Source of the DNA: Microbispora bryophytorum
Lineage (GTDB): Bacteria > Actinomycetota > Actinomycetes > Streptosporangiales > Streptosporangiaceae
DNA length: 64,000 bases
Direction of reading: 5' to 3'
Assembly (NCBI RefSeq): GCF_006874465.1
Contig: NZ_VIRL01000002.1
Coordinates: 80,092-144,091 of the forward strand
How positions within the stretch are numbered: position 1 is the first letter of the stretch; each line of letters opens with the position of its first letter. Under the pieces are notes generated by a model, which saw only the letters and a list, made by a program, of their open reading frames with translations, was not told where the DNA came from and made no database searches. Made by a program: the position numbers and the translations under genes. Below are positions 20,431-53,610 of the stretch, piece after piece.

Positions 20431-22149
20431 TCAGAACAGGAAGTAGCGCTGCGCCATCGGCAGCGACTCGGCCGGGGCGGGCTCGATCAGCTCGCCGTCC
20501 ACGTGGACGGCGAAGGTGTCGGGGTCCACCCGGATGTCCGGCAGGGCGTCGTTGAGGGGCATGGCGTCCTTGCGCCGGGCGCGTACGTCGGCCACGGGGA
20601 CCAGCCGTCTGCGCACGGCCAGGCGGTCCGCCAGGCCGTCCTCCAGCGCGAGCGGCGCGACGAAGTGCAGCGAGGTCGCCGCGGCGGTGGCGGGGGCGGC
20701 GCCGAACATCGGCCGGGGGAGCACGGGCTGCGGCGTCGGGATCGACGCGTTCGCGTCGCCCATCTGCGCGTAGGCGATGACGCCGCCCTTGACGACGAGG
20801 TCCGGCTTGACCCCGAAGAAGGCCGGGCTCCACAGGACGAGGTCGGCGAGCTTGCCGGGCTCCACCGAGCCGATCTCCGCGTCCAGGCCGTGTGCGATCG
20901 CGGGGTTGATCGTGTACTTGGCGACGTAGCGGCGGGCGCGGAGGTTGTCGGCCGGGCCGTCGCCCGGCAGCGCCCCGCGGCGCCGCCTCATCACGTGCGC
21001 CGTCTGCCACGTGCGGATGATGGTCTCGCCGACCCGGCCCATGGCCTGGGAGTCCGAGCCGATCATCGAGATCGCGCCCATGTCGTGCAGGACGTCCTCG
21101 GCCGCCATCGTCGTCGGCCGGATCCGCGACTCGGCGAAGGCCAGGTCCTCCGGGATGGCGGGGTTGAGGTGGTGGCACACCATGAGCATGTCCAGGTGCT
21201 CGTGGTGGGTGTTGACGGTGTGCGGCCGGGTCGGGTTGGTGGACGACGGCAGCACGTTGGCGTGGGAGGCCACCGTGATGATGTCCGGAGCGTGGCCGCC
21301 TCCGGCGCCCTCGGTGTGGTAGGCGTGGATCGCCCGGCCGCCGATGGCCCGCAGGGTCGACTCCACGAACCCCGCCTCGTTGAGCGTGTCGGTGTGGATG
21401 GCGACCTGCACCCCTGTGGCGTCGCACACCCGCAGGCACGCGTCGATGGCGGCCGGGGTGGTGCCCCAGTCCTCGTGCAGTTTGAAGCCCGACGCCCCGG
21501 CCCTGAGCTGTTCGAGCAGCCCCTCCTCGCCGACCGTGTTGCCCTTGCCGAGCAGGGCCACGTTGACCGGGTAGCCGTCCAGCGACTCCAGCATCCGGCC
21601 GAGATACCAGGTGCCGGTCACGGTGGTGGCCTTCGTGCCCTCGGCGGGGCCGGTGCCGCCGCCGACGATCGTGGTGACGCCCGAGGCGAGCGCCTCGTCG
21701 AGGATCTGCGGGCAGATCAGGTGGACGTGGGAGTCGACGGCGCCCGCCGTGACGATCTTGCCGTTGGCCGCGAGGATCTCGGTGGACGGGCCGATGACGA
21801 GGTCCGGGTGGACGCCGTCCATGGTGTCGGGGTTGCCGGCCTTGCCGATGGCGGCGATCCGGCCGTCGCGCACGCCGATGTCGGCCTTGACCACACCCCA
21901 GTGATCGAGGATCACCGCGCCGGTGATGACGAGGTCGGCGGCCCCCTCGGCTCTCGTGGTGCGCGCCTGCCCCATCGACTCGCGGATGACCTTGCCGCCG
22001 CCGAACACGGCCTCGTCGCCGGCCCCGGCGGGCCCCATCGACAGGTCCTCGGTCACCTCGACGTACAGGTCGGTGTCGGCTAGGCGCACCCGGTCGCCGG
22101 TGGTCGGGCCGTACAGCGCGGCGTAGCGGGCGCGTTCGAGGCTAGACAT
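20431..22149 (-). CDS. ureC: Urease alpha subunit
   Basis: This is the catalytic subunit of urease, 572 residues. Visible active-site elements are the carbamylated lysine in [12 protein letters not shown], nickel-ligand histidines ([24 protein letters not shown]), the flap [20 protein letters not shown] with the mobile cysteine, and GSDSQAMGR with the terminal aspartate. It overlaps ureB by 8 bp. All key residues are present, so an active enzyme is expected. Confidence 0.98.
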
Positions 22150-41024: not shown

Positions 41025-42198
41025 GCTGGTCCACCGCCCAGTCCAGGTCGTCCCGCGAGACGACGAGGGGCGGCGCGAGGCGGATCGTCGAACCGTGCGT
41101 GTCCTTGACGAGCACGCCGCGGCGCATGAGCGCCTCGCTGATCTGCCGGCCGGTGCCGAGCGACGGGTCGATGTCGATGCCCGCCCACAGCCCGCGCCCG
41201 CGCACGGCCACCACACCGGGGCCGAGGTCCGCCAGCCGCGCGTGCAGGAACGCGCCGAGCTCGCGGGCCCTGGCCTGGTACTCGCCGGTCCGCAGCAGCC
41301 CGATCACCGCGTCGCCGACGGCGCACGCCAGCGGGTTGCCGCCGAAGGTGGACCCGTGCTGGCCGGGCCCGATCACGCCCATGACATCGGCGTCGGCGAC
41401 GACCGCGGAGACCGGGACCACGCCGCCGCCGAGGGCCTTGCCCAGGACGTACAGGTCGGGGACGACGCGTTCGTGGTCGCAGGCGAACGTCTCGCCGGTG
41501 CGGCCGAGGCCCGACTGGATCTCGTCGGCCACCATCAGCACGTTGTTGTCGGTGCAGATCTCCCTGACCGCGGCGAGGTAGCCGTCCGGCGGGACCAGCA
41601 CGCCGGCCTCGCCCTGGATGGGCTCCAGCAGCACGGCCACCGTGTTCTCGTCGATCGCCTCCCTGACCGCTTCGGCCGAGCCGTACTTGACGACCCGGAA
41701 GCCGGGGGAGAAGGGACCGAAGCCGTCGCGCGACTCGGGGTCGGTGGAGAAGCCCACGATGGTCGTGGTGCGGCCGTGGAAGTTGTCCTCCATCACGACG
41801 ATGTTGGCCTGGCCGGGGGCGACGCCCTTGACCTCGTAGCCCCACTTGCGGGCGACCTTGATCGCGGTCTCGACGGCCTCCGCGCCGGTGTTCATCGGCA
41901 GGACCATGTCCTTGCCGCACAGCTCGGAAAGGCCGGTCACGAACTCGGCGAACCGGTCGTGGTAGAACGCCCGGCTGGTCAGCGTCAGCCGGTCGAGCTG
42001 CTCGCGGGCGGCGGTGAGGATCTCCGGGTTGCTGTGGCCGAAGTTCAGCGAGGAGTAGCCGGCCAGGCAGTCGAGATACCGCTTGCCCTCCACGTCGGTG
42101 ACCCAGGCGCCCTCGGCCGAGCTGATCACGACGGGCAGCGGGTGGTAGTTGTGCGCGCTGCGGCTCTCGCTGAGCCGGATCAGTTCCTCGCTGTTCAT
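40993..42198 (-). CDS. rocD: Ornithine aminotransferase
   Basis: This PLP enzyme converts ornithine plus 2-oxoglutarate to glutamate semialdehyde and glutamate. The 401-residue class III aminotransferase shows MNTGAEAVETAIKVARKWGY, ADEIQSGLGRTG (pyridine-ring aspartate) and the Schiff-base lysine in LGKALGGGVVPVSA. The start overlaps ddaH by 4 bp, so the two are coupled. It probably serves arginine and ornithine breakdown. Confidence 0.93.
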   Translation of the reverse strand: MNSEELIRLSESRSAHNYHPLPVVISSAEGAWVTDVEGKRYLDCLAGYSSLNFGHSNPEILTAAREQLDRLTLTSRAFYHDRFAEFVTGLSELCGKDMVLPMNTGAEAVETAIKVARKWGYEVKGVAPGQANIVVMEDNFHGRTTTIVGFSTDPESRDGFGPFSPGFRVVKYGSAEAVREAIDENTVAVLLEPIQGEAGVLVPPDGYLAAVREICTDNNVLMVADEIQSGLGRTGETFACDHERVVPDLYVLGKALGGGVVPVSAVVADADVMGVIGPGQHGSTFGGNPLACAVGDAVIGLLRTGEYQARARELGAFLHARLADLGPGVVAVRGRGLWAGIDIDPSLGTGRQISEALMRRGVLVKDTHGSTIRLAPPLVVSRDDLDWAVDQLSAVLREARA

Positions 42199-43049
42199 CG
42201 AATCTCCCTGTTCGGCCGGATCTCGAGGGTGCAGCACTTGGGCCCGCCGCCGGCCTTGCGCAGCTCGCCGAGGTCCACCGGGACGACCTCGAAGCCGCGG
42301 CGCTTGAGTTCCAGGGCCAGCTCGGTCGCCTCGGCGTTGACGACGACGTTGCGGCCGTCGCTCACCGCGTTGAGGCCCAGCACCTCCGCGTCCGCGGACG
42401 TGGCGATCACGGCGTCGGGGAACAGCCGCCGCAGCACCTTCCTGCTGCCTTCGCTGAACGCCTCCGGATAGTACGCGACGTTGTGGCCGTCCAGCGGGAA
42501 CAGGGCGGTGTCGAGGTGGTAGAACCTCGGGTCGACCAGGCGCAGCGTGACGACCGGCCGGCCGAGGAACTCCTGGGCCTCCATGTGCGCCGCCACGTCG
42601 GTGCGGAAGCCCGTCCCGGCCAGGATCATCTCGTCGAGCGTCAGGTAGTCGCCCTCGCCCTCGTTGGTGAAGGACGCATCCAGTGTCTCGTATCCCTGTT
42701 CGGCGAACCACCGCAGGTAGGCGGGGCCCTCGGCGGCGCGCTCCGGGTGCGCGAACCTCGCCCCGTAGACCCGTCCGTCCACGACCAGCGCGCCGTTCGC
42801 GGCGAACACCATGTCCGGCAGGCCCTCGATCGGGTCGATCAAACTCACGGTGTGGCCCAGGCTCTCGTACGCCTGCCGGAGGGTGTCCCACTGCCGCAAC
42901 GCCCTGGTCGTGTCGGTGTCCCTCTCGGGATGCATCCAGGGGTTGATGGAATACGAGACCGTGAAGAACTCGGGCCGGCACATCAGGAAATGCCGGACCG
43001 TTCCCGTACGACCACTGTCGGTGGTCTCGGTGGCTGGCGCGAGCGTCAT
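42195..43049 (-). CDS. ddaH: Dimethylargininase-like (DDAH/amidinotransferase fold) hydrolase
   Basis: The 284-residue protein belongs to the guanidino-modifying superfamily. DMVFAANGAL and FTNEGEGDYL carry substrate-binding acids, FYHLDTAL the catalytic histidine, and GGGPKCCTLEI the nucleophilic cysteine near the C-terminus. Such proteins are annotated dimethylargininase in actinobacteria, but activity on arginine or another guanidine cannot be excluded. ATG at 43049 is chosen because GGAG precedes it; a TTG 12 bases upstream is alternative. Confidence 0.82.
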   Translation of the reverse strand: MTLAPATETTDSGRTGTVRHFLMCRPEFFTVSYSINPWMHPERDTDTTRALRQWDTLRQAYESLGHTVSLIDPIEGLPDMVFAANGALVVDGRVYGARFAHPERAAEGPAYLRWFAEQGYETLDASFTNEGEGDYLTLDEMILAGTGFRTDVAAHMEAQEFLGRPVVTLRLVDPRFYHLDTALFPLDGHNVAYYPEAFSEGSRKVLRRLFPDAVIATSADAEVLGLNAVSDGRNVVVNAEATELALELKRRGFEVVPVDLGELRKAGGGPKCCTLEIRPNREIR

Positions 43050-43156
43050 CGTCGACTCCAAGCGGAAAACCGGGTGAACGGGACTTCAGCGTAGGAATCG
43101 GAAGCCGACAATCCAATGCGCCCACGTTGCGATCACGTGTGGATCGGTTGCGTCCT

Positions 43157-43780: not shown

Positions 43781-44494
43781 TCAGGCCGCCTCGCAGATCA
43801 GCTCGGCCGCCCTGGCCAGCAGATCCGTGTAGACGGTCGGGTCATCGGCGTCGATGACCGGGAACCCCACGCCGAAGTCGCCGTTGACCCACCGTGCTCG
43901 CACGCCGGGATTCGCGACGTCGGTCCCGTCGTACAGGAACACATGGGGGCTGCAGTTGACCCGGCCGTGCCGGGCCGTCTCGAACTGATCCATCACCGCC
44001 CGCCGGGCACGGCCGTCGTCGAGCGCCTCGGCCAGCGCCCCGACGTCGACCACCCCGGTGGAGGCCGCGACGTCGAGGATCTCGTGCCGCAGCGAGATGC
44101 ACCGGCCCTCGGCCCAGAAGGCCCGGCGCAGCCCCAGGTCGAGCTGTTCCGAGGCGTGCAGGCTCTGCGCCTTCGCCGCCTGCACGGCCTCCAGGGGCGG
44201 CAGCATCGTGACCGGATAGGTCCAGTCGGGCCCCTGCCACAGCCGCCAGCCGGCGCCGGGGTCGAGCGCGCCGACCACCGACACCTCCGAGTCCACCCCC
44301 GGACGCTCGTTCACCGTCCGGTTGAACAGCTCCAGCGGGAAGCAACGGTGGTCGAACCACAGCCGTCCCTCCAGGCCGAGCCGCCGGCGCGCCTCGTGCA
44401 GGCGGTAGACGGCCAGGTGGGCGAAGGAGCAGTTGAGGTCGGAGAAGACCACGATCGTGTCGAGCGAGTCGGGCAGCCGCGGATCCCTGTTCAT
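43781..44494 (-). CDS. DsbA-fold protein without CxxC, copy 1
   Basis: The 237-residue thioredoxin/DsbA-fold protein has TIVVFSDLNCSFAHLAVYRLHE at the N-terminus, where the redox CxxC is reduced to CSFA. A helical insert with WAEGRCISLRHEILDVAASTGV follows, and a cis-proline-like region VNCSPHVFLYDG. It resembles HCCA-isomerase/FrnE-like members rather than disulfide oxidases. It overlaps the permease stop by 4 bp and ends the nitroimidazole-type operon. A clear paralogue is encoded at 50186-50872. Possible roles are thiol conjugation, isomerisation or product protection (inference). Confidence 0.8.
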   Translation of the reverse strand: MNRDPRLPDSLDTIVVFSDLNCSFAHLAVYRLHEARRRLGLEGRLWFDHRCFPLELFNRTVNERPGVDSEVSVVGALDPGAGWRLWQGPDWTYPVTMLPPLEAVQAAKAQSLHASEQLDLGLRRAFWAEGRCISLRHEILDVAASTGVVDVGALAEALDDGRARRAVMDQFETARHGRVNCSPHVFLYDGTDVANPGVRARWVNGDFGVGFPVIDADDPTVYTDLLARAAELICEAA

Positions 44495-45942
44495 CTCGTA
44501 TCACCTCCGGTCGGTACGGCCGTCCGCTCGGGGAACAGCCGGCACAGCACGGCGTAGAGCAGCGCCGCCGTGCAGAACGGCACCAGGCAGCTCAGGTCCA
44601 CCCCGCCCGCCAGCCGGGCGAACGGGCCGGTGTAGATCGTGTTGTCCACGAACAGCAGCCCGAGGACCACCGCGGGCGCGAACGCCCCAAGGGCCCGGAG
44701 GTTGAACCCCCCGGTGAACCAGTACCTGCCCCGGTCGGCGGGCCGGGCGAAGCCGTACAGGTCATCGGGGTGGTACCGGCCCCGACGCAGGGCGAGTCCG
44801 ACCAGCATGATCGCGGTCCACGGCGAGACGAGGACGAGCAGGATCAGCACGAACGTCGAGATCGACTCGATGGCGTCGAAGACGATCGCCCCGACGTAGA
44901 GGGTGGCGACGCCGAGCGCCCACATCAGCCACGTCGCGGCGGCGCGGGGGAGCCGCCACAGGAGGGAGTTGGCCGACAGCCCCGCCGCGTACAGGCACAG
45001 TGCCGCCTGCGGCAGCGTGCCGGCGAACCCGAAGGCGATCACCACGACCGCGAACCAGCGGGGCACGGCGTCGGCCACCCCGAGGATCCAGGGCGCCGAG
45101 CCGTCCGTCAGCATCGTCGTGACGTAGGCGCCGCCGACAAGGGCGATCGCGTTGCTCACGTACATCGCCGCGCCGTTGTACACCACCGCCGTCCGGTCGC
45201 GGACCTGGGGCGACAGGTAGCGGCTGTAGTCGCCCTGGAACGTCGAGTACGACACCGGCAGCGTGGCGCTGAAGGACACGGCCAGCAGCCAGGTCCGCCA
45301 GAAGTCGCCCAGCGCGTACTGCCCGCCCGCGTACGCCGGGTCGAAGTCGGGCAGCAGCACCACGACCAGCGCCAGCAGCACCAGTCCGCCGATCACCGTC
45401 ATGACTTTGTACGTCGCCAGCAGCGCGCCGTATCCGAACACCGCGACCACCACGACGGCCAGTGCCATCAGCGGCATCGTGACGGCCAGCCCGGCCGGGC
45501 CGGCCGGGGTGCCGAGCACCCGCTGGGCGGCCGCGAGGATGGCCGTCGCGCCCGTCCACACCGCGATCGAGAAGAACCCGATCGCGACCACGATCGTGAT
45601 GACGTTGGCGACGACCCGGCCGCGCACGCCGAAGTGGGCGCCGCTGGACACCGCGTCGTTGGCGCCGGTGCGCTTGCCGAACAGCACGAGCGGTGCGAAC
45701 ACCGCCGTGCCGATCAGCAGCCCCACCAGGATCGCGGTGACGGAGGCCGTCCAGCTCAGGCCGAAGCTCACCGGCACCGAGCCGAGCACCACCGTGCCGA
45801 AGGAGAACTGGGCCGAGTGCCAGATCCACAGGAACTCGCGCGGCGAGGCGGTCCGCTCGCCGTCCGGGATCCGGCCGACGCCGTGCGTCTCCACCCGCGT
45901 GCTCTGCCCGGTGACCGGGGCGGGCAGCTCGCGGGTGGTCAC
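44491..45942 (-). CDS. NCS1-family permease (purine/cytosine type)
   Basis: The 483-residue transporter of the nucleobase:cation symporter-1 family has about twelve membrane helices. An N-terminal WIWHSAQFSFGTVVLGSVPVSFGLSW leads into the typical first pair of helices, and FQGDYSRYL is diagnostic of NCS1 loops. In this operon it probably moves an imidazole such as 2-aminoimidazole or the nitroimidazole product, because NCS1 carriers take similar heterocycles (inference). The start GTG overlaps the Rieske gene by 4 bp. Confidence 0.88.
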   Translation of the reverse strand: MTTRELPAPVTGQSTRVETHGVGRIPDGERTASPREFLWIWHSAQFSFGTVVLGSVPVSFGLSWTASVTAILVGLLIGTAVFAPLVLFGKRTGANDAVSSGAHFGVRGRVVANVITIVVAIGFFSIAVWTGATAILAAAQRVLGTPAGPAGLAVTMPLMALAVVVVAVFGYGALLATYKVMTVIGGLVLLALVVVLLPDFDPAYAGGQYALGDFWRTWLLAVSFSATLPVSYSTFQGDYSRYLSPQVRDRTAVVYNGAAMYVSNAIALVGGAYVTTMLTDGSAPWILGVADAVPRWFAVVVIAFGFAGTLPQAALCLYAAGLSANSLLWRLPRAAATWLMWALGVATLYVGAIVFDAIESISTFVLILLVLVSPWTAIMLVGLALRRGRYHPDDLYGFARPADRGRYWFTGGFNLRALGAFAPAVVLGLLFVDNTIYTGPFARLAGGVDLSCLVPFCTAALLYAVLCRLFPERTAVPTGGDTR

Positions 45943-46271
45943 GGAGCACCCGCCTCGGGCAGGACGGCCTCGGCGTACGCCGCCGCCTCCGCCGCCGACC
46001 GAGGAGACGCGGCGTCCTCGGGCAGTAGCGTGACGCGCAGCGATCCGCACGGCGGGCCGGCCACCTGCTGCCCGGTGAGCAGGTCGAACGTGGAGTGGTG
46101 CAGCGGGCAGGTGATCCGCAGCGTCCGCCCGTTGAGGTAGCCGTAGCGCAGCCGCCCCTTGCGGTGGGGACACTCCGCCTGGGTCAGCACCCGCCTGCCC
46201 GCCACCTCGATGAGCAGGAGGTCGGGCGCGATCTGGCGCAGCGAGACGGGCCGGCCCGTGTCCTGGGTCAT
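45939..46271 (-). CDS. Rieske [2Fe-2S] ferredoxin of the cluster
   Basis: This 110-residue soluble Rieske protein has C34-P-H36 and C55-P-L-H58 (AECPHRKGRL and ITCPLHHSTFDLLTG) as cluster ligands. It is probably the electron donor to the adjacent diiron oxygenase, which needs external reducing power for N-oxygenation. It overlaps both neighbours by 4 bp. I believe the azomycin cluster also encodes such a ferredoxin (RohT), but I am unsure of the name. Confidence 0.88.
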   Translation of the reverse strand: MTQDTGRPVSLRQIAPDLLLIEVAGRRVLTQAECPHRKGRLRYGYLNGRTLRITCPLHHSTFDLLTGQQVAGPPCGSLRVTLLPEDAASPRSAAEAAAYAEAVLPEAGAP

Positions 46272-47116
46272 GCGGGCACCTTCCTCGCCCTGCCCACCGC
46301 GGCCTCCGTCGCCTCCGCGATGACGGCGCTGGTCAGCGTGACGCCGGTCCACACCTTGGCCAGGTCGACCTCGCGGTGCTCGCCCAGCGCCCGTATCGCG
46401 GTCTGCATCTGCTTGGAGTGGAAGCTGTCGATGTACAGATGTTCTGTGTAATAGCGGTCGTTGCTGATGCCGAGCCGTTTCGCCGCGGCCGCGAAGGGCT
46501 TAAAGGCGTACAGCACGCTGGCCTCGAAGTAGGCGTACGCGCCGAGGAAGTACTCCGGCTCCGGCGCCCGATCGGCCAGCCAGTGGAACAGGTTGACGTA
46601 CGCGAAGCTGGCCTCCCCGGCCCGGTCCACGTAGTGCTGTAGATCGGCGGGCATGCCCAGCTCGGTCACGAGGTCGCGGTAGAGCCGCGAGTGCTCCATG
46701 TCGTCGTTGCCGCAGCCGAACTCGTCGATGAGCACGCGCAGCACGGCCATGCGCGCCTTCGACGGCAGGCGCCGCAGGATCCCGATGTGGGACTGCGACT
46801 CCACCAGGCCGTCGACGGCGAACTCCGCGACCACCGTCTTGAACTGGTCGAGGGTGGCCTCCTCCGCCAGGAAGCGCTCGTCGCCGGAGGGGTTGGCCTG
46901 CTCCTTGCCCAGCAGGTCGTGGAGCGCGTCGATCAGCTCGATGCGGAACCCGAAGCGGGGAGCGCGCTCCTCGTGCTCGGCGGCGAGAGGCACCACCCAG
47001 TCGCGCTCGATCTCGCACAGCTCGGCGTACCTCTCGGGGGTGAGGACCGAGCGGTTGTAGACGTAGAGCCGCTTCTGGACGGAGTCTCCGGGCCGGACCT
47101 CCAACATCCCGCTCAC
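46268..47116 (-). CDS. rohS: Heme-oxygenase-like diiron N-oxygenase (RohS-like)
   Basis: The 282-residue helical protein belongs to the heme-oxygenase-like diiron oxidases. All seven ligand positions can be placed: E106, E132, H142 (in DDMEHSRLY), E198 (YFEASVLYAF), H226, D230 and H233 (TEHLYIDSFHSKQM). The spacing fits the pattern of N-oxygenating members such as SznF. By analogy to RohS of the azomycin pathway it would oxidise 2-aminoimidazole to 2-nitroimidazole. The GTG start overlaps the aldolase stop by 4 bp; ATG three codons later is possible. Confidence 0.88.
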   Translation of the reverse strand: MSGMLEVRPGDSVQKRLYVYNRSVLTPERYAELCEIERDWVVPLAAEHEERAPRFGFRIELIDALHDLLGKEQANPSGDERFLAEEATLDQFKTVVAEFAVDGLVESQSHIGILRRLPSKARMAVLRVLIDEFGCGNDDMEHSRLYRDLVTELGMPADLQHYVDRAGEASFAYVNLFHWLADRAPEPEYFLGAYAYFEASVLYAFKPFAAAAKRLGISNDRYYTEHLYIDSFHSKQMQTAIRALGEHREVDLAKVWTGVTLTSAVIAEATEAAVGRARKVPA

Positions 47117-47922
47117 CCCGCTTCCTCGACGACCGCATCGGTGTCGATGACCCCGCGGCGGTGCAGTTCCTTCTTCAGGTGCCGGTACCAGTCGTCGTGG
47201 AACAGGCCGTACCGCTCGCAGGTCGCGTCGATCTCCCGCTGCCGCTCCGTGGACGGCTGGGCCAGCATGGCGTTGGCGAGGCCGGGCTCCAGGTTGGCCA
47301 GGGGACCGATGAAGCCGGCGACGCCGCCGGGTCCCGTCACCTCGTGCAGGAGGTTCTCCCAGCCCTCGAACACCGGGATCTCGGGGACCGCGGCGACGAG
47401 CTTCCTGGTGAACTCGGCCGACCCGCTGGACTCCTTGATGCCGACGACGCCGGGCAGGGCGCAGACGCGCACCAGCGTGTCCAGTTCGATCTGGTTGCCC
47501 GACAGGGCCTTCTCGTTGTAGATGAACAGCGGGACCGGCACGGCCTCCCGGATCGCCCGGTAGTGCTCGTAGATCGCCTCCTGCGCCAGGTCCGGCGAGA
47601 AGGGGGTGGTGACGGCGATGGCCGCGACGCCGAGGGCCTGGGCCTCCTTCGCCCTGGCGATCACCTCCTCGGTGGTCGGCGACTGCACGCCGGCCAGGAC
47701 GGGCAGCCCGTCCGCGTGGCGGACGGTGTAGGCGACCACGTCCTGCCACTGCCGATCCGACAGCTTCCACCCCTCGCCGGTGGACAGGGCGGGCATCAGC
47801 CCGGTGACCTCGCTCCCGAGAGACCCGACGAGCCGCCGTACGCTCTGCTCGGACACCTCGCCCGCCTCGGTCAGGGGCGTGACCATGGGGACGATCGTCC
47901 CCGAGTGCTTTGCTGGATACAC
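47113..47922 (-). CDS. rohR: DapA-fold aldolase (RohR-like)
   Basis: The 269-residue protein of the dihydrodipicolinate synthase/N-acetylneuraminate lyase family has the Schiff-base lysine K163 in VVGIKESSGS and the tyrosine in LFIYNE. The usual GTTGE loop is altered to LSTGEG, so it is not a lysine-pathway DapA. In the azomycin pathway RohR cleaves 4-hydroxy-2-ketoarginine to guanidinoacetaldehyde and pyruvate, a reaction this fold suits. The start is GTG. Confidence 0.85.
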   Translation of the reverse strand: MYPAKHSGTIVPMVTPLTEAGEVSEQSVRRLVGSLGSEVTGLMPALSTGEGWKLSDRQWQDVVAYTVRHADGLPVLAGVQSPTTEEVIARAKEAQALGVAAIAVTTPFSPDLAQEAIYEHYRAIREAVPVPLFIYNEKALSGNQIELDTLVRVCALPGVVGIKESSGSAEFTRKLVAAVPEIPVFEGWENLLHEVTGPGGVAGFIGPLANLEPGLANAMLAQPSTERQREIDATCERYGLFHDDWYRHLKKELHRRGVIDTDAVVEEAG

Positions 47923-47930
47923 GGGTCACC

Positions 47931-48437
47931 TCACAGGTCGTCGACGTCGACTCGCAGGGCCAAGGACCGCTCGTAGAGCCGTTCGAGCGGCGCCGGGAAC
48001 ACCGGTTCGTCGTCGGACGGCTTCACGGGCTCCACCGGCAGGACCGGCAGGTCGGGGCGCAGGCTCAGCCGGGGGCTGGCCGTGACCACGACCGTGTCGC
48101 GGCGCATCGCCATCGCCACGAGCAGCCGCTCGTGCAGCGGAAGGCCCGACAGCACCCCGGCATCGAGGGCCAGGCGCAGGTCCTGCTCGTCGTAGCCGAT
48201 GCGGTCGATGGCCATGTCGGAGTGCAGGTTGTCCATGAACGGGTAGTACTCGTCCTGCACCTGGCGGGGGTACCGCCAGACCAGGTCGTCGCACCGCCCC
48301 ACGTGCTCCAGGCTCATCAGGACGTGGCCGCCGGACAGCCGCTCGGTGAAGAAGCGCTTGCACCCCCGCCGGACCTCGTCGTCGCGGTTGTGCATGCCCA
48401 TGAACAGGGCGGCGTCGAGGAAGGGCTCACCGCTCAT
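47931..48437 (-). CDS. rohQ: DUF6190-like protein, probable cyclodehydratase (RohQ-like)
   Basis: The 168-residue protein begins [30 protein letters not shown] and continues [35 protein letters not shown]. It resembles proteins labelled DUF6190. An N-terminal FLDAALF resembles a PIN-type acidic start, but the fold is unproven. By position between PLP enzyme and aldolase it corresponds to RohQ, thought to cyclise guanidinoacetaldehyde to 2-aminoimidazole. The ATG is preceded by GAGGTG and lies 11 bp inside the upstream gene. Confidence 0.72.
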
Positions 48438-49641
48438 AGCCGAGCAGCACCTCACGCATCCGGTGCATGGCGCAGGAGAAGGTGCCGGGCCGGCGGGCGA
48501 GGGCGACGCGGATGTAGCGCTCGCCCTTCGCGGGGTCGTTCCAGTAGAAGTACGTGCCGGGCAGCACGTAGACCTCGTCCTGCAGCAGCCGCTCCTGCAA
48601 CTCGCTCGCGGTGAGGTCCTCCGGCTTGATGCGGAACCACGCGACGCTCGTGTTCACCACGGGCTCGACGTACTCGAGGATGGTGCCCTGGACGGCCTTG
48701 ACGGCCATCGCCCGGTTGTCGGTGATCACGTCGCGTACCGAGGCGAAGTTGTCCTCGATCGAGTCCTCGACGTACTGGGTGAGGAAGTTGAGGACGAACG
48801 GCGAGACGTTCAGCAGGACGGCCGTCTGGATGTTGTAGACCTCCTCCTTGATGTCGTCGCTGACCGTGAGCATCGCGCACTTGGCGTCCTGCACCGGCCA
48901 GGTCTTGCCGGTGTCCTCCAGCGCCATGTAGGAGACGCCCGACTCCTCCAGCAGCTTGTAGATGTCGATGCGCCCGATCTTCTCGTCGCACAGCGCGAAC
49001 GAGGCGAAGCACAGGTCGAGCATCAGCAGCTTGCCGTGGTCCTTGCAGTAGCGGATGACCTCGCGGAACCCGTCCATCCCGTACTGCAGGAGGCTGAATC
49101 CGGTCGGGTTGTTCGGGTCGACCAGATAGAGCGCGTCTGTTTCCAGCGTGCTCAGGTTCGAGTAAATGCGCGCCGGATCGGCGAGCGACTCCTCAGGCAG
49201 TGCGGTGAGCTCGACCTTCATGTGCTTGAGCAGATCGACGAGATTGTCGAAGCACGGCTCGATGAGGCCGACCGACATGTTCCGCTGCATCAGGTACATG
49301 GCGGCGACCATTGTGGACACGCTGGCCGAATACGACAGCCAGGTTTTGCCGGCGGCGGCCGCGGTGGGCTGCTTGTGCAGGCGGAAGAAGGCGTCGATGA
49401 ATCGGCGCTCGAAATACGCCTGCTGGTTTTCCTCGGACTCGTACCACAGGTCGGGGAGACGGGCGACGATCTTGTCCTGGCCGGCCGACTGACGCTGGTG
49501 GGTGTGGGCGTCGGCGAGGTTCCATCGAGTTTTCAGGGCCTGGATCTCGTGCTGGGTGAGGTCGACGAACCCGGCCACATCCGGTGCCGTACCGGACGCG
49601 CTGAGGGGCGTCTCTTCGATTTCCGAACCGACATTGTTCAT
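48427..49641 (-). CDS. rohP: PLP-dependent arginine hydroxylase-like enzyme (RohP-like)
   Basis: The 404-residue fold-type I PLP protein has NNPTG (178-182), the pyridine-binding D209 in LMLDLCF and Schiff-base lysine K246 in LEDTGKTWP. It differs from ordinary aminotransferases and resembles the oxygen-using arginine oxidase/hydroxylase group (RohP, MppP, Ind4). RohP turns L-arginine and O2 into 4-hydroxy-2-ketoarginine. ATG at 49641 follows AAGGGA; a GTG five codons upstream is alternative. It heads the operon, with a promoter about 170 bases upstream. Confidence 0.83.
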
Positions 49642-49806
49642 GACAGATCCCTTCACTGGTGCGGAACATGGAGTAGCGCAAGAGTGGTGCGGGAAGACAT
49701 GCGTCAGAGGCGGCGGCTTCGCCGCGAGCTCCTTCTTACGGAGAAGCAGGGAGGGGATTCACTCCCGTGTTTTGCCCGTGCTGGGGTGCCGGGCGATTGC
49801 GTTAGA

Positions 49807-49874
49807 AAGGTACGTTCTCACTCACAGTGGAGTCAACGGTGAGACGGGAAATCAATCTTTCTGGATTTCCAGAA
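49807..49874 (-). promoter_or_regulatory. Promoter and palindromic operator of the roh-like operon
   Basis: On the minus strand TTGACT (49831-49836) and TACCTT (49807-49812) form -35 and -10 elements 18 bases apart. Upstream, TTCTGGA-TT-TCCAGAA (49859-49874) is a perfect palindrome, a candidate activator or repressor site. The resulting 5' leader is about 155 bases and includes the hairpin-forming GCGGCGAAGCCGC. Confidence 0.65.
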
Positions 49875-50044: not shown

Positions 50045-50181
50045 GTTCTGTGTCCCCGTGAGAGGACCGTTCTGTGCGTCGGGAATAAGGCTGCTATGTG
50101 CCCCCGCGATGCTCTGTGCCCCAGTAGAGGGGTGTTCTGTGTTTTCGGATGAGGGGTGTTCTGTATCCCCGGGAGAGGGCT
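50045..50181. repeat. Degenerate 24-bp tandem repeats
   Basis: GTTCTGTG or close variants begin at 50045, 50069, 50093, 50111, 50134 and 50158, mostly 23-24 bp apart. Each is followed by CCCC and GAGAGG-like segments. The array lies just beyond the stop of the DsbA-like gene and before the terminator. It would code for RTPL-type 8-residue repeats in one minus frame, but nothing supports translation. Confidence 0.65.
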
Positions 50182-50185
50182 TCGG

Positions 50186-50872
50186 TCAGGCGGCCGCGCG
50201 CTTGAGGATGTCCTCGTACACGCTCGGATCGTCTGAGGAGACGACGGGCCAGCCGATGCCGTACGAACCCACCCAGCCGACCTCGATTCCGGGGTTGGGG
50301 TGGTCGGTGCCGTCCGGCAGGAACAGGTGCGGGCTGCAGTTCACCCGGTCGGTCGCCGAGATGGCGGCCTGTTCGGACAGCGTCCTGCGGGCCCGGCCGT
50401 CGTCGAGCGCGGCCGCCAAGGCGTCCACGTCCACCACGCCGGTGGACGCGGCGGCGTCCAGGATGACCTTGCGATGGCTGATGCACCGGGACTCGGCCCA
50501 GAATGCCTTCCGCAGCGCCAGGTCGAGCTGCTCCGACGCCGTGAATCCCTGCTCCTTGGCCGCCTGGACGGCCTCCAGCGCGGGCAGCGTGGTGGACGGG
50601 TAGAGCCAGTCCTTCGCCTGCCACAGCTGCCACCCCGCGTCGGGCTCCAGCGCGGCCATCCGGCCCACCTCGCTGTCGGTCCCCGGCCGGGGACTGGGCG
50701 CGTCGTTGAGGAGCTCCAGCGGGAAGGCGCGGTGGTCGAACCGGACCCGGTCGGTCAGGCCCAGCCGCTCCCGGGTCCTGTGGAGCCGGTGTACGGCTAT
50801 GTGCGCGAAGGAGCACCAGATATCCGAGAAGATAACGATGGTGCCGGGTTCCGGGGTCAGTGTCGTCGTCAT
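50186..50872 (-). CDS. DsbA-fold protein without CxxC, copy 2
   Basis: The 228-residue paralogue of the protein at 43781-44494 shares long blocks such as CSFAH, FDHR-FPLEL, LEAVQAAK-Q, ASEQLDL and ALDDGRARR. The active-site region reads IFSDIWCSFAHIAVHRLH, so again only one cysteine of the redox pair remains. VNCSPHLFLPDG near the C-terminus is also kept. It lies in the second transcript of the cluster, 32 bases after the metallo-hydrolase gene. Confidence 0.8.
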   Translation of the reverse strand: MTTTLTPEPGTIVIFSDIWCSFAHIAVHRLHRTRERLGLTDRVRFDHRAFPLELLNDAPSPRPGTDSEVGRMAALEPDAGWQLWQAKDWLYPSTTLPALEAVQAAKEQGFTASEQLDLALRKAFWAESRCISHRKVILDAAASTGVVDVDALAAALDDGRARRTLSEQAAISATDRVNCSPHLFLPDGTDHPNPGIEVGWVGSYGIGWPVVSSDDPSVYEDILKRAAA

Positions 50873-50904
50873 CGACGTTCTCCTTGTGTCGTGCCTCGTG
50901 TCGC

Positions 50905-51729
50905 TCAGGCCGCGCCGGCGCTGAGCGTCGCCCCCTCGTGCTTGGCGAGCACGGCCTCCACCAGCACGTCCTCATCCGGCAGCCACGGGGTCATGGAAGG
51001 CACCTCACGCAGCGTCTTCACGAGCGTCTCGGTGCCCTCCACGACGGTGGCGCCGTGCGAGCTGAGGATGTGCCGGGGGGCGAGCCGGAGCAGGTCGTCG
51101 AGCACGATGTCGAACTTGGCCGGGTCGGCCAGTGCGGTCCAGGGGGCGTTGGCCCTGGTGAACAGGGCCATCCCGGCGAGGTAGTCGCTCTCCGGGATGT
51201 CCTGGGCGTCCTCCGCCAGTGTCGGCAGGATCGCGCCGAAGCTGTCCGCGCTGAACAGCGAACGGGTGGCGTGATCGTAGAGGGCGAGAGTTGAGGGGGA
51301 GTCGTAGGCGGGCGGGCGCAGCAGGGAGACGATCCTGCCCCCGAGGTCGAGCGTGCGGCCGGGGTTGACCTGCAGGACGCGGTTCGGGGGCACGTCCCAC
51401 TCCTCGCCGAGCCGCGCGACGGCCAGGCCGTTCGTGATGACCTTGGCCTGCGGCGCCGCCATGAGGACTTCCTTGAGGTTGCCCGCGTGGTCCCTGTCGT
51501 CGTGCGTGAGCACGATCCAGCGCAGGTCGGCCGGGTCGACCAGGGACCACAGGGCCTGCTCGAAGTAGCCGCGGTCGATCGCCATGCCGGTGTCGACGAG
51601 GATCGGCTGCGGGCCGCGGATCAGGTAGGCGTTCACCGGCAGCAGGCCGGCGCCGTTGATCGGGAGGGACGACGGCAGCGTGGTGATGCCGGGTGTCGCC
51701 TCATATGAGTTGCGCAGATAGGAGGTCAT
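50905..51729 (-). CDS. Flavodiiron-type metallo-beta-lactamase-fold protein
   Basis: The 274-residue protein has the metal loop LTHDDRDHAGN. Its third position is Asp instead of the His of ordinary hydrolases, recalling the H-x-E-x-D-H of flavodiiron proteins. STLALYDHATRSLFSADSFG and LSSHG are also flavodiiron-like. The FMN-binding flavodoxin domain is missing, and one ligand histidine position reads Asp (YDSPST). It may reduce O2 or NO with an external donor, or be a hydrolase (inference). It lies between exporter and DsbA-like genes. Confidence 0.8.
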   Translation of the reverse strand: MTSYLRNSYEATPGITTLPSSLPINGAGLLPVNAYLIRGPQPILVDTGMAIDRGYFEQALWSLVDPADLRWIVLTHDDRDHAGNLKEVLMAAPQAKVITNGLAVARLGEEWDVPPNRVLQVNPGRTLDLGGRIVSLLRPPAYDSPSTLALYDHATRSLFSADSFGAILPTLAEDAQDIPESDYLAGMALFTRANAPWTALADPAKFDIVLDDLLRLAPRHILSSHGATVVEGTETLVKTLREVPSMTPWLPDEDVLVEAVLAKHEGATLSAGAA

Positions 51730-51773
51730 GGAGGGGGGTCCTTTCCGCGGTGAGCTGACTCAGGTGAGGTGAA

Positions 51774-52796
51774 TCAGGTGAGCTGGACCAGCACCGAGCC
51801 GACGATGAGCAGGGCGAGACCGGACAGGCGCGGCGCGTTGAGCGGGCGGCGGGGCAGTCGCAGGAAGCCGTAGTTGTCGATCACCGCCGAGGCGACCTGC
51901 TGGCCGGTCACGGTCAGCGCCACGGTGGTGGCGGCGCCGATCGTCGGGATGAGCGTGAAGGTCGCGGTGACATACGCCGCGGCGCAGGCGCCGCCGAGCC
52001 AGCCCCACCAGGGCATCGTGCGCAGCCCGCCGAGCTGCGGCCGGGGGGTGCGGCGCGTCGCCAGCAGGACGAGCAGCACCACGGCGATGGTGATCGTGGC
52101 CACGATGAAGCTGATCATCGCGGTGGTCACCGGCTCGTGGATGTCCTTGCGCAGCTCGGCGTTGACCGCTCCCTGCACCGGCAGGACCGCACCGGCCACG
52201 ATGCCCAGCAGGATCCAGCCGCTCTGGCCGAGGCTCCCGCTGCTGCGTACGGCCGTAGGCGCCGCGGCGGTGACGGTGGCCGTCCCCCCACGGGCGGCCG
52301 TGCCGGCCGCGCCGCCGGGCGCCGGTCCAGCCGCGGGCGGCGACTGGGCCGGGCGCTGTCCCCGGATGATGACCGTGATGCCGGCGAGGACCGCGAGCGC
52401 GCCGAGCGCGATGCCGACGCTGAGCGGCTTGCGCGTGATGCCGAACAGGCCGAACAGGTCGAGCCCCAGCGACGCGAACATCTGGCCGGTCACGAACAGG
52501 CCCGCCGCGGCCAGCGCGCCGAGGCGGGGGAAGAGCAGGATCCCGCTGGTGATGTAGAGCGGGCTGGCCAGACCCCCGAGCAGGTGCCAGAAGGGTACGC
52601 CGGGAATGAAGCGGACCGCGCCGATCGCGCCGACGGCGACCGCGAGGAGGGCCAGCAGGGCCGTCGCCACGCCCAACTGCAGGGTCGAGGCGCCGTACGG
52701 CGTCCCCACGGCCTTGTTGAGCTGGAGATTCACCGAGGCTTGCACTGCTAGTAAGCAGCCGACCAGCAGCGCCGAGGCGAGGAACAGGGCATGCAT
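51774..52796 (-). CDS. Fused DMT-type exporter (DUF606/YdcZ repeat)
   Basis: The 340-residue membrane protein contains two homologous halves. Each opens with a similar helix and an N-L or N-E motif (LLAVQASVNLQLNKAVGTPYG and VLPVQGAVNAELRKDIHEPV). They are joined by an Ala/Pro/Gly-rich linker of about 50 residues. Ten membrane helices are likely. The halves match DUF606/YdcZ drug/metabolite transporters, usually encoded as one five-helix unit. It heads the second transcript of the cluster, controlled by the divergent TetR, and is a good candidate for product export. Confidence 0.82.
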   Translation of the reverse strand: MHALFLASALLVGCLLAVQASVNLQLNKAVGTPYGASTLQLGVATALLALLAVAVGAIGAVRFIPGVPFWHLLGGLASPLYITSGILLFPRLGALAAAGLFVTGQMFASLGLDLFGLFGITRKPLSVGIALGALAVLAGITVIIRGQRPAQSPPAAGPAPGGAAGTAARGGTATVTAAAPTAVRSSGSLGQSGWILLGIVAGAVLPVQGAVNAELRKDIHEPVTTAMISFIVATITIAVVLLVLLATRRTPRPQLGGLRTMPWWGWLGGACAAAYVTATFTLIPTIGAATTVALTVTGQQVASAVIDNYGFLRLPRRPLNAPRLSGLALLIVGSVLVQLT

Positions 52797-52845
52797 CGCG
52801 ATCCCTCTTCTAGAGAACCGGATTTCGAGAAGCCGGATCAGAACC

Positions 52846-52891
52846 GGACATGGTGTCCGGATGAGCGTAAGACAAAGTGGACGCGATGTCC
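52846..52891. promoter_or_regulatory. Two phased operators GGAC-N5-GTCC
   Basis: GGACATGGTGTCC (52846-52858, inside the longer palindrome CCGGACATGGTGTCCGG) and GGACGCGATGTCC (52879-52891) are 33 bp apart centre to centre, three helical turns. They lie between the divergent exporter and TetR genes and probably bind that TetR. Confidence 0.75.
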
Positions 52892-52923
52892 ACATAGTTC
52901 TGGCAGGGGGCTACCATGGCCTC

Positions 52924-53610
52924 ATGGCCAACGGGTTGATGGATCCCGGCGGGAATCGGAGGAACGGCCGCGTTCCGTCGGAGGGGACCATCCCGGCCGG
53001 CGCCGGCCGGGAACTGCCCGTGCTCGACCTCGAACCGGGTCCCCCGGCGCCGGTACGGGAACGGGCCGACGCCGCGCGCAACCGCATGCGCGTGCTGAAG
53101 GCGGCCGAACAGCTCTTCGCGACGAGGGACGCGCGGCACGTCACGATGGACGAGATCGCCAAGGCGGCGGGGGTGGGACGGGCCACGCTCTACCGGCGCT
53201 ATCCGGACCCCGCGTCGATCGCGACGGCTCTCCTCGACGAGCACGAGCGGCAGGTGCAGGGACACATCCTGAACGGCCCGCCGCCGCTCGGCCCGGGGGC
53301 CTGCCCGGCCGACCGGCTGGCCGCGTTCTATGTCGCCATGATCGACCTACTGGAGCGTCACCTGCACCTCGTGCTAGGAGCCGAGATCGGGAGCGCGCGG
53401 TTCGGCACCGGCGCCTACCGCTTCTGGCGCGCGCACGTGCGGATGCTGATGACCGAGGCGCGGGTGCCGGACCCGGAGGGGATGGCGGACGCCGCGCTGG
53501 CGCCGCTCGCGCCCGAGGTCTACCAGTTCCAGCGGCACACCTTGGGCCTGTCGCAGGCCCGCATCACCGAGGCGCTGGTGTGGAGCGCTCGGCGACTCGC
53601 GGGAGGCTGA
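52924..53610 (+). CDS. TetR-family regulator of the exporter
   Basis: The 228-residue protein has a roughly 45-residue disordered N-terminal extension rich in Gly and Pro. The helix-turn-helix VTMDEIAKAAGVGRATLYRRYPDPASIATALL follows, and then a ligand domain. The ATG is weakly preceded by GGGGG. It diverges from the exporter, with two operators between, and likely senses the cluster product or an intermediate. Its last 47 bases overlap the convergent TetR gene. Confidence 0.85.
   Translation: MANGLMDPGGNRRNGRVPSEGTIPAGAGRELPVLDLEPGPPAPVRERADAARNRMRVLKAAEQLFATRDARHVTMDEIAKAAGVGRATLYRRYPDPASIATALLDEHERQVQGHILNGPPPLGPGACPADRLAAFYVAMIDLLERHLHLVLGAEIGSARFGTGAYRFWRAHVRMLMTEARVPDPEGMADAALAPLAPEVYQFQRHTLGLSQARITEALVWSARRLAGG

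What the first reader, a model, noticed from the sequence alone, without database searches (positions are those of the whole stretch)
44491..49641. Azomycin-type (2-nitroimidazole) biosynthetic operon
Six coupled genes encode a RohP-like PLP enzyme, a DUF6190-like protein, a DapA-fold aldolase, a heme-oxygenase-like diiron enzyme, a Rieske ferredoxin and an NCS1 permease. The motifs are seen directly: K246 and D209 in the PLP enzyme, K163 in the aldolase, seven iron ligands in the oxygenase, and two CxH/CxxH pairs in the Rieske protein. The combination and order match the pathway from L-arginine to azomycin that I recall from Streptomyces cattleya. A producer outside Streptomyces would be notable.
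Basis: partly seen in the sequence, partly recalled or inferred. Interest (0 to 1): 0.92.

Follow-up and report, generated by a model that had tools for sequence, protein, structure and literature searches.

The report
Azomycin antibiotic operon in Microbispora
A soil actinomycete carries the known set of genes that turns arginine into the antibiotic azomycin, and the genes beside it look like a switchable self-protection kit that some relatives have kept after losing the antibiotic genes.

Summary
At 44491-49641 (minus strand) lie rohP, rohQ, rohR, rohS, rohT and an NCS1 permease, abutting or overlapping. RohP, RohQ and RohS match PDB 6c3a, 9c5w and 9pfx with E 1e-156, 1e-25 and 1e-48, and the named residues are in place. 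It is not novel as such: printed examples exist in Streptomyces, Kitasatospora, Saccharothrix, Actinokineospora and Pseudomonas, and one capped scan gave 80 loci. The stated borders are too narrow. The cluster extends to a divergent TetR gene with two operators, a YdcZ-type exporter, a flavodiiron-like MBL protein and a one-cysteine DsbA-fold protein (50186-53610). The DsbA-like gene lies at 62 of 69 actinobacterial roh loci and 0 of 11 others. Of 15 Microbispora genomes, five have everything, eight lack roh but keep TetR and exporter (four with DsbA), two have nothing. Best reading: known biosynthesis plus an apparently undescribed inducible self-protection module. Nothing was tested at the bench.

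The parts
48427..49641 (-). rohP: PLP- and O2-dependent L-arginine oxidase/hydroxylase (404 aa, K246, D209)
   Evidence: phmmer to PDB 6c3a E 1.1e-156; MppP only 2.4e-54; 79% mean column identity over 10 RohP
47931..48455 (-). rohQ: DUF6190 cyclodehydratase (174 aa)
   Evidence: PF19689 1.9e-64; PDB 9c5w 'Cyclodehydratase RohQ' 1.3e-25
47113..47922 (-). rohR: DapA-fold retro-aldolase (K163, Y135)
   Evidence: PF00701 1.5e-35; DapA alignments; position in operon
46268..47110 (-). rohS: haem-oxygenase-like diiron N-oxygenase
   Evidence: PDB 9pfx PbrRohS 1.2e-48, SznF 1.4e-10; seven ligands
45939..46274 (-). rohT: Rieske ferredoxin, presumed electron donor to RohS
   Evidence: PF00355 1.2e-9; CPH/CPLH motifs
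44491..45948 (-). NCS1-family permease
   Evidence: PF02133 2.9e-45; in 28 of 33 MBL-type named loci; no match at the locus of roh-less Microbispora
43781..44494 (-). second DsbA-fold protein (dsbA1), overlaps the permease gene by 4 bp
   Evidence: CSFA motif
50186..50872 (-). one-cysteine DsbA/FrnE/GST-kappa-fold protein (dsbA2; C20-S-F-A23)
50905..51729 (-). MBL-fold, ODP/flavodiiron-like protein (H76-x-D78-x-D80-H81, D162, H225 invariant)
   Evidence: PF19583/PF00753; flavorubredoxin matches; alignment A3 of 20 rows
51774..52796 (-). YdcZ-type DMT exporter
   Evidence: PF04657 3.9e-66; next to MBL in 32 of 33 MBL-type named loci
52924..53610 (+). divergent TetR-family regulator
   Evidence: PF00440
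52842..52862 (.). TetR operator copy 1 (AAGTGGACAnnnTGTCCACTT type)
   Evidence: PWM 27.3 bits; matrix trained on such sites
52875..52895 (.). TetR operator copy 2
   Evidence: PWM 29.8 bits; next best site in the 64 kb scores 7.7
49805..49837 (-). sigma70-like promoter of rohP (TTGACT ... TACCTT), by eye
   Evidence: aligned in the window and 3 other Microbispora genomes and in weaker form in G168; located

Best explanation
44491-49641 is a rohPQRST azomycin (2-nitroimidazole) operon of Microbispora with its own promoter. By the pathway known from other species, RohP oxidises L-arginine with PLP and O2 to 4-hydroxy-2-oxoarginine (intermediate recalled). RohR, a retro-aldolase, gives guanidinoacetaldehyde and pyruvate (recalled), RohQ cyclises and dehydrates to 2-aminoimidazole, and RohS, presumably fed by the Rieske protein RohT, oxidises the amine to the nitro group. 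The NCS1 permease presumably moves 2-aminoimidazole, azomycin or a precursor. Upstream lies a second unit, dmt-mbl-dsbA2, which a divergent TetR with two operators most likely represses. I read it as inducible self-protection: the YdcZ-type protein exports azomycin, and the cytosolic one-cysteine DsbA-fold protein handles thiol adducts (mycothiol in actinobacteria) of reduced azomycin or leaked nitroso/hydroxylamino intermediates. Shown: the genes, homologies, operator-like sites and presence/absence. Inferred: every substrate, the product in this strain, TetR binding, and the protection role.
Against: No expression, product or resistance data. No operator was found before rohP, so TetR does not evidently control biosynthesis. 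Double sites of this general type occur in 98 of 297 family genomes, only 11 of which can have RohQ, so regulator and operator belong to a wider group. DsbA is absent from the 11 non-actinobacterial loci and from 7 of 69 actinobacterial ones (three cut by contig ends, one whose genome has another roh cluster with DsbA), so it is not essential to the pathway. dsbA in roh-less Microbispora may reflect fewer events than it seems: those four alleles form one clade (99/78), unlike the flank-gene tree. The DsbA profile matches FrnE only at 3e-4, and the window's own DsbA2 sequence matched no PDB sequence at 0.01. The Fisher tests do not correct for kinship.
Confidence: 0.85

Rival explanations
1. 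The DsbA-like and MBL proteins are biosynthetic helpers, for example redox or maturation partners of RohS or scavengers of H2O2 from RohP, not protection proteins.
For: Both sit between exporter and rohP; MBL was seen at none of ten roh-less module loci, so it behaves like a production gene.
Against: DsbA stays at 6 of those 10 roh-less loci, and Pseudomonas strains make azomycin while no DsbA was found at any of 11 non-actinobacterial loci.
Confidence: 0.25
2. The operon makes a different arginine-derived compound (enduracididine-, guanitoxin- or capreomycidine-type).
For: RohP resembles MppP (5.7e-51) and weakly the GntC and VioD models.
Against: The MppP score of 173.7 is far under its cut-off of 450; RohQ and RohS relatives are present and the best structure match is 6c3a at 1e-156.
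Confidence: 0.04
3. The cluster is silent in this strain.
For: Roh was most simply lost at least twice within Microbispora, and two tested P. syringae strains with the genes gave no azomycin in planktonic growth.
Against: The genes are open with intact residues, a promoter aligned over relatives, and 92-97% protein identity to G097.
Confidence: 0.3
4. The neighbouring dimethylargininase-like gene (42195-43061) is an NnhA-type azomycin hydrolase, hence the resistance gene.
For: NnhA belongs to the same superfamily as DDAH and arginine deiminase (passages).
Against: It passes the dimethylargininase cut-off (426.5 against 300), is in 15 of 15 Microbispora genomes with or without roh, and had no match within the DNA held for the named roh loci outside Microbispora.
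Confidence: 0.03

Closest known systems
rohPQRST azomycin cluster of Streptomyces eurocidicus (loci L071 and L072 here)
   Same: The same five enzymes in the same order; a DsbA-like gene nearby
   Different: L071 carries MarR, rhodanese, YceI (named by reading), a PRMT-like methyltransferase and a multicopper oxidase, while the window has TetR, YdcZ exporter, MBL and NCS1 permease
Azomycin clusters of Pseudomonas (DF41, CMR5c)
   Same: rohPQRST
   Different: Next to luxRI. No DsbA or MBL at 11 non-actinobacterial loci by tblastn; for exporter and TetR only my gene finder looked, and it misses genes in lower-GC DNA
Rv2466c/Mrx2, mycothiol-dependent nitroreductase of M. tuberculosis, and FrnE of Deinococcus
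   Different: The roh-linked protein has CSFA and lacks the second cysteine; no close sequence kinship was shown

Membership tests
rohPQRST azomycin operon | RohP arginine oxidase | tested here: met
   6c3a 1.1e-156 (identity of 6c3a as RohP recalled); K246, D209
rohPQRST azomycin operon | RohQ DUF6190 cyclodehydratase | tested here: met
   9c5w 1.3e-25; PF19689
rohPQRST azomycin operon | RohR DapA-fold aldolase with Schiff-base lysine | tested here: met
   PF00701 and K163; no characterised RohR was compared directly
rohPQRST azomycin operon | RohS diiron N-oxygenase with seven ligands | tested here: met
   9pfx 1.2e-48; seven residues aligned with SznF
rohPQRST azomycin operon | RohT Rieske protein | tested here: met
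   PF00355, CPH and CPLH
rohPQRST azomycin operon | Converts arginine to azomycin | not testable with these tools
   Needs enzyme assay or LC-MS
MppP enduracididine enzyme | NCBIfam TIGR04462 cut-off of 450 bits | tested here: not met
   173.7 bits
Dithiol DsbA/Mrx2-type oxidoreductase (DsbA-like genes) | CxxC active site | tested here: not met
   C20-S-F-A23; CSFA in 71 of 72 roh-locus rows, CPFA in one; one row under 210 aa left out
DsbA/FrnE/GST-kappa fold | Fold | tested here: met
Flavodiiron/ODP MBL protein | Flavodiiron-type metal ligands | tested here: inconclusive
   H76, D78, D80, H81, D162, H225 invariant in 20 rows; the third histidine is replaced, perhaps by D143

The most novel reading that the evidence does not exclude
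Actinobacterial azomycin clusters carry a dedicated one-cysteine DsbA/GST-kappa-fold protein, a mycothiol-dependent enzyme that neutralises 2-nitroso-, 2-hydroxylamino- or nitro-imidazole. With a TetR-controlled YdcZ exporter it forms an inducible nitroimidazole self-protection system that persists, and may act, in strains without the antibiotic genes.
Probability: 0.4. Interest if true: 0.68.

Novelty: new member of a known kind. Interest (0 to 1): 0.42.

Why it matters
How azomycin producers survive their own nitroimidazole was not described in what I could see (searches; a look for resistance terms in one paper; the founding Hedges and Ryan paper was not opened and is known to me by recall and citation). 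Candidate genes are named here. One of them, the DsbA-like gene, is linked to roh at 62 of 69 actinobacterial loci, and the module shows up as a stepwise series at one chromosomal site in Microbispora, so the question becomes testable by gene removal and in vitro assay. A link to mycothiol-dependent nitroreductases would bear on how actinobacteria handle nitro compounds.

Tried and rejected
Rejected: enduracididine-, guanitoxin- and capreomycidine-type products (scores far under cut-offs). DDAH neighbour as NnhA-like hydrolase. Arginine genes ddaH, rocD, lrp as cluster parts: ddaH is in 15 of 15 Microbispora genomes with or without roh, and in named loci the three recur as a block only in Microbispora, so they are locus background. 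TetR control of rohP: no operator upstream in the window. An operator unique to roh clusters: rejected. A direct-repeat array before rohP (50119-50179) is not seen in the aligned relatives. An RNA element at rohP: the only Rfam hit in the window is elsewhere. Literature for azomycin plus DsbA, or azomycin plus Microbispora: no papers in the held library.

Limits: one search kept the best 80 of 114 loci. The gene finder is my own, was trained on high-GC genes, and misses genes in lower-GC loci (RohQ in 6 of 11 non-actinobacterial loci by it, in 11 of 11 by tblastn). Locus L139 (G002, DsbA 63%) was not resolved. Absences of MBL and permease are at the locus, not genome-wide; G221 was seen on two short contigs. 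VIA-align rows are only from Foldseek's top 1000 chains, so unlisted folds are not excluded. The loss counts on the tree are my own hand count.
Full report
WHAT IS THERE. Six minus-strand genes fill 44491-49641 and abut or overlap. Pfam names them Aminotran_1_2, DUF6190, DHDPS, Haem_oxygenas_2, Rieske and Transp_cyt_pur. Against the PDB the PLP enzyme matches 6c3a at 1.1e-156 (labelled 'Uncharacterized protein' there; that it is S. cattleya RohP is recalled) and MppP only at 2.4e-54. The DUF6190 protein matches 9c5w 'Cyclodehydratase RohQ' at 1.3e-25 and 9oq8 'RohQ'. The oxygenase matches 9pfx 'PbrRohS' at 1.2e-48 and SznF at 1.4e-10. The aldolase matches DapA-type enzymes; no characterised RohR was compared directly.

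WHERE IT IS. The genome (7.85 Mb, 137 contigs) holds one DUF6190 gene.

IT IS A KNOWN PATHWAY. I read part 1 of 4 of PMC12713392 and parts 1 and 2 of 5 of PMC10724926. They give arginine to 2-aminoimidazole by RohP, RohR and RohQ and the nitro step by RohS. They report azomycin from two Pseudomonas strains, and azomycin formation in vitro by RohS of Kitasatospora azatica, Saccharothrix sp. and Actinokineospora terrae (K. viridis only a trace, a Pseudonocardiales RohS none). One scan of named genomes gave 114 RohP relatives, of which the best 80 loci were kept: 69 actinobacterial and 11 other. A carrier outside Streptomyces is therefore ordinary.

THE CLUSTER IS LARGER THAN STATED. Gene families around the 80 loci show three main actinobacterial layouts, which largely group on a RohP tree (quick method; only one of the three is a single group there). 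The window belongs to the layout tetR < > dmt-mbl-dsbA-rohPQRST-permease. Of 33 named loci with the MBL gene, 33 have DsbA, 32 the exporter, 30 the TetR and 28 the permease. A DsbA relative also sits at most loci of the other two layouts: downstream, up to about 5 kb from rohT, beside a methyltransferase and often a multicopper oxidase (upstream in Actinokineospora), or divergent upstream. In total 62 of 69 actinobacterial loci have it and 0 of 11 others. The seven without are L030, L035, L054, L055, L066, L070 and L089; L035, L055 and L066 are cut by contig ends, and L030's genome has a second roh cluster with DsbA (L027).

IS THE LINK MORE THAN CHANCE? In 297 genomes of the family, 11 have RohQ. 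All 11 have a DsbA of at least 60% identity (in fact 73% or more), against 7 of 286 others (Fisher p 1e-15). In 394 genomes of the class, which share genomes with the first sample, it is 5 of 5 against 1 of 389 (p 8e-11). Kinship is not corrected for. DsbA proteins at roh loci read CSFA in 71 of 72 rows (one row under 210 aa was left out); the exception (L088, second copy) groups with non-roh proteins. The 12 rows from other contexts read CPFA or CPWA; seven rows that lie with the TetR module away from roh read CSFA, one of them (L149) from a genome that has roh on another contig.

A SERIES AT ONE SITE. In 15 Microbispora genomes the site between lrp-ddaH-rocD and a second TetR with an ABC transporter was compared. 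Five have everything. Four (G139, G178, G194, G211) have only tetR-dmt-dsbA. Three (G155, G200, G065) have only tetR-dmt. G221 has tetR-dmt near a contig end and no RohQ or DsbA in the searches. G119 and G216 have nothing. On a tree of six flank genes G139 is sister to the full G097 and G155 sister to the full G206, so two losses nested among carriers are the simplest account. By hand count a single origin needs five losses; equal-cost parsimony would also allow two gains and two losses. Against full independence, the four roh-less dsbA alleles form one clade (99/78). With two further genera (G072, G267), ten roh-less genomes that have the module show tetR 10/10, dmt 9/10, dsbA 6/10, mbl 0/10 and permease 0/10 at the locus. 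They were picked because they carry the module.

REGULATION. In 38 of 38 tetR-dmt intergenic regions there is at least one site of the palindrome AAGTGGACAnnnTGTCCACTT over 17 bits, and in 34 there are two, 32-45 bp apart. The matrix was trained on these sites, but plain consensus matching gives 13-18 of 18 for 72 of 76 picked sites, against a best-site mean of 9.7 and maximum of 12 in shuffled intergenics. In the window only 52842-52862 and 52875-52895 stand out. In its genome the double pattern occurs once, with none for the reversed control, yet it occurs in 98 of 297 family genomes, control 1, so this is a general operator type of a TetR group. In G267 it lies directly between tetR and dsbA without exporter or roh at the locus, which ties the regulator to dsbA itself. 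rohP has its own promoter-like sequence (49805-49837).

VERDICT. The operon is a real and correctly named member of a known kind. The new part is the conserved regulator-exporter-DsbA module beside it; I found no paper naming it, but my searches cover only the held library, and neighbours may be drawn in figures I could not see.

Noticed in passing
L055 (Streptomyces sp. UNOC14_S4), L059 (S. griseocarneus 132): roh clusters without a rohQ match between rohP and rohR.
   Followed up: no
L071 and L072 (S. eurocidicus); also L053/L078, L065/L069, L047/L057, L027/L030, L055/L081: Two roh clusters in one genome, mostly of different layout, including the classical azomycin producer.
   Followed up: partly
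L057, L058, L061, L063, L064, L066, L067, L077, L087 (open frames of 434-445 aa): In some eurocidicus-type clusters the PRMT-like methyltransferase frame is longer; in L061, the one scanned, Pfam finds Rieske and methyltransferase domains, an apparent RohT-methyltransferase fusion.
   Followed up: partly
L053, L055-L059, L061, L064, L067, L077, L087: Element CGGACnnnnGTCCGnnnACGGGGG upstream of rohP in 11 loci, not found upstream of rohP in the window.
   Followed up: partly
L036 (Nocardiopsis sp. FR4), same genome as G244: rohQ reads in two frames, so it is broken or a sequencing error.
   Followed up: no
L089 (Kitasatospora sp. GAS204B): rohP, rohQ and rohR without a rohS/rohT match, with transposase-like frames nearby (by reading): a remnant or a 2-aminoimidazole-only cluster.
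   Followed up: no
L140-L146, L150-L152: CPFA/CPWA DsbA relatives often lie beside PPOX-like, WrbA-like or glyoxalase-II-like genes (names from reading the sequences), which hints at a wider detoxification family.
   Followed up: partly
21695-21989 (+): Rfam 5_ureB_sRNA match (67.7 bits) antisense to the urease-like genes; perhaps only coding conservation.
   Followed up: no
50119-50179: 24-bp direct repeats upstream of rohP, present in the window strain but not in the aligned relatives.
   Followed up: partly
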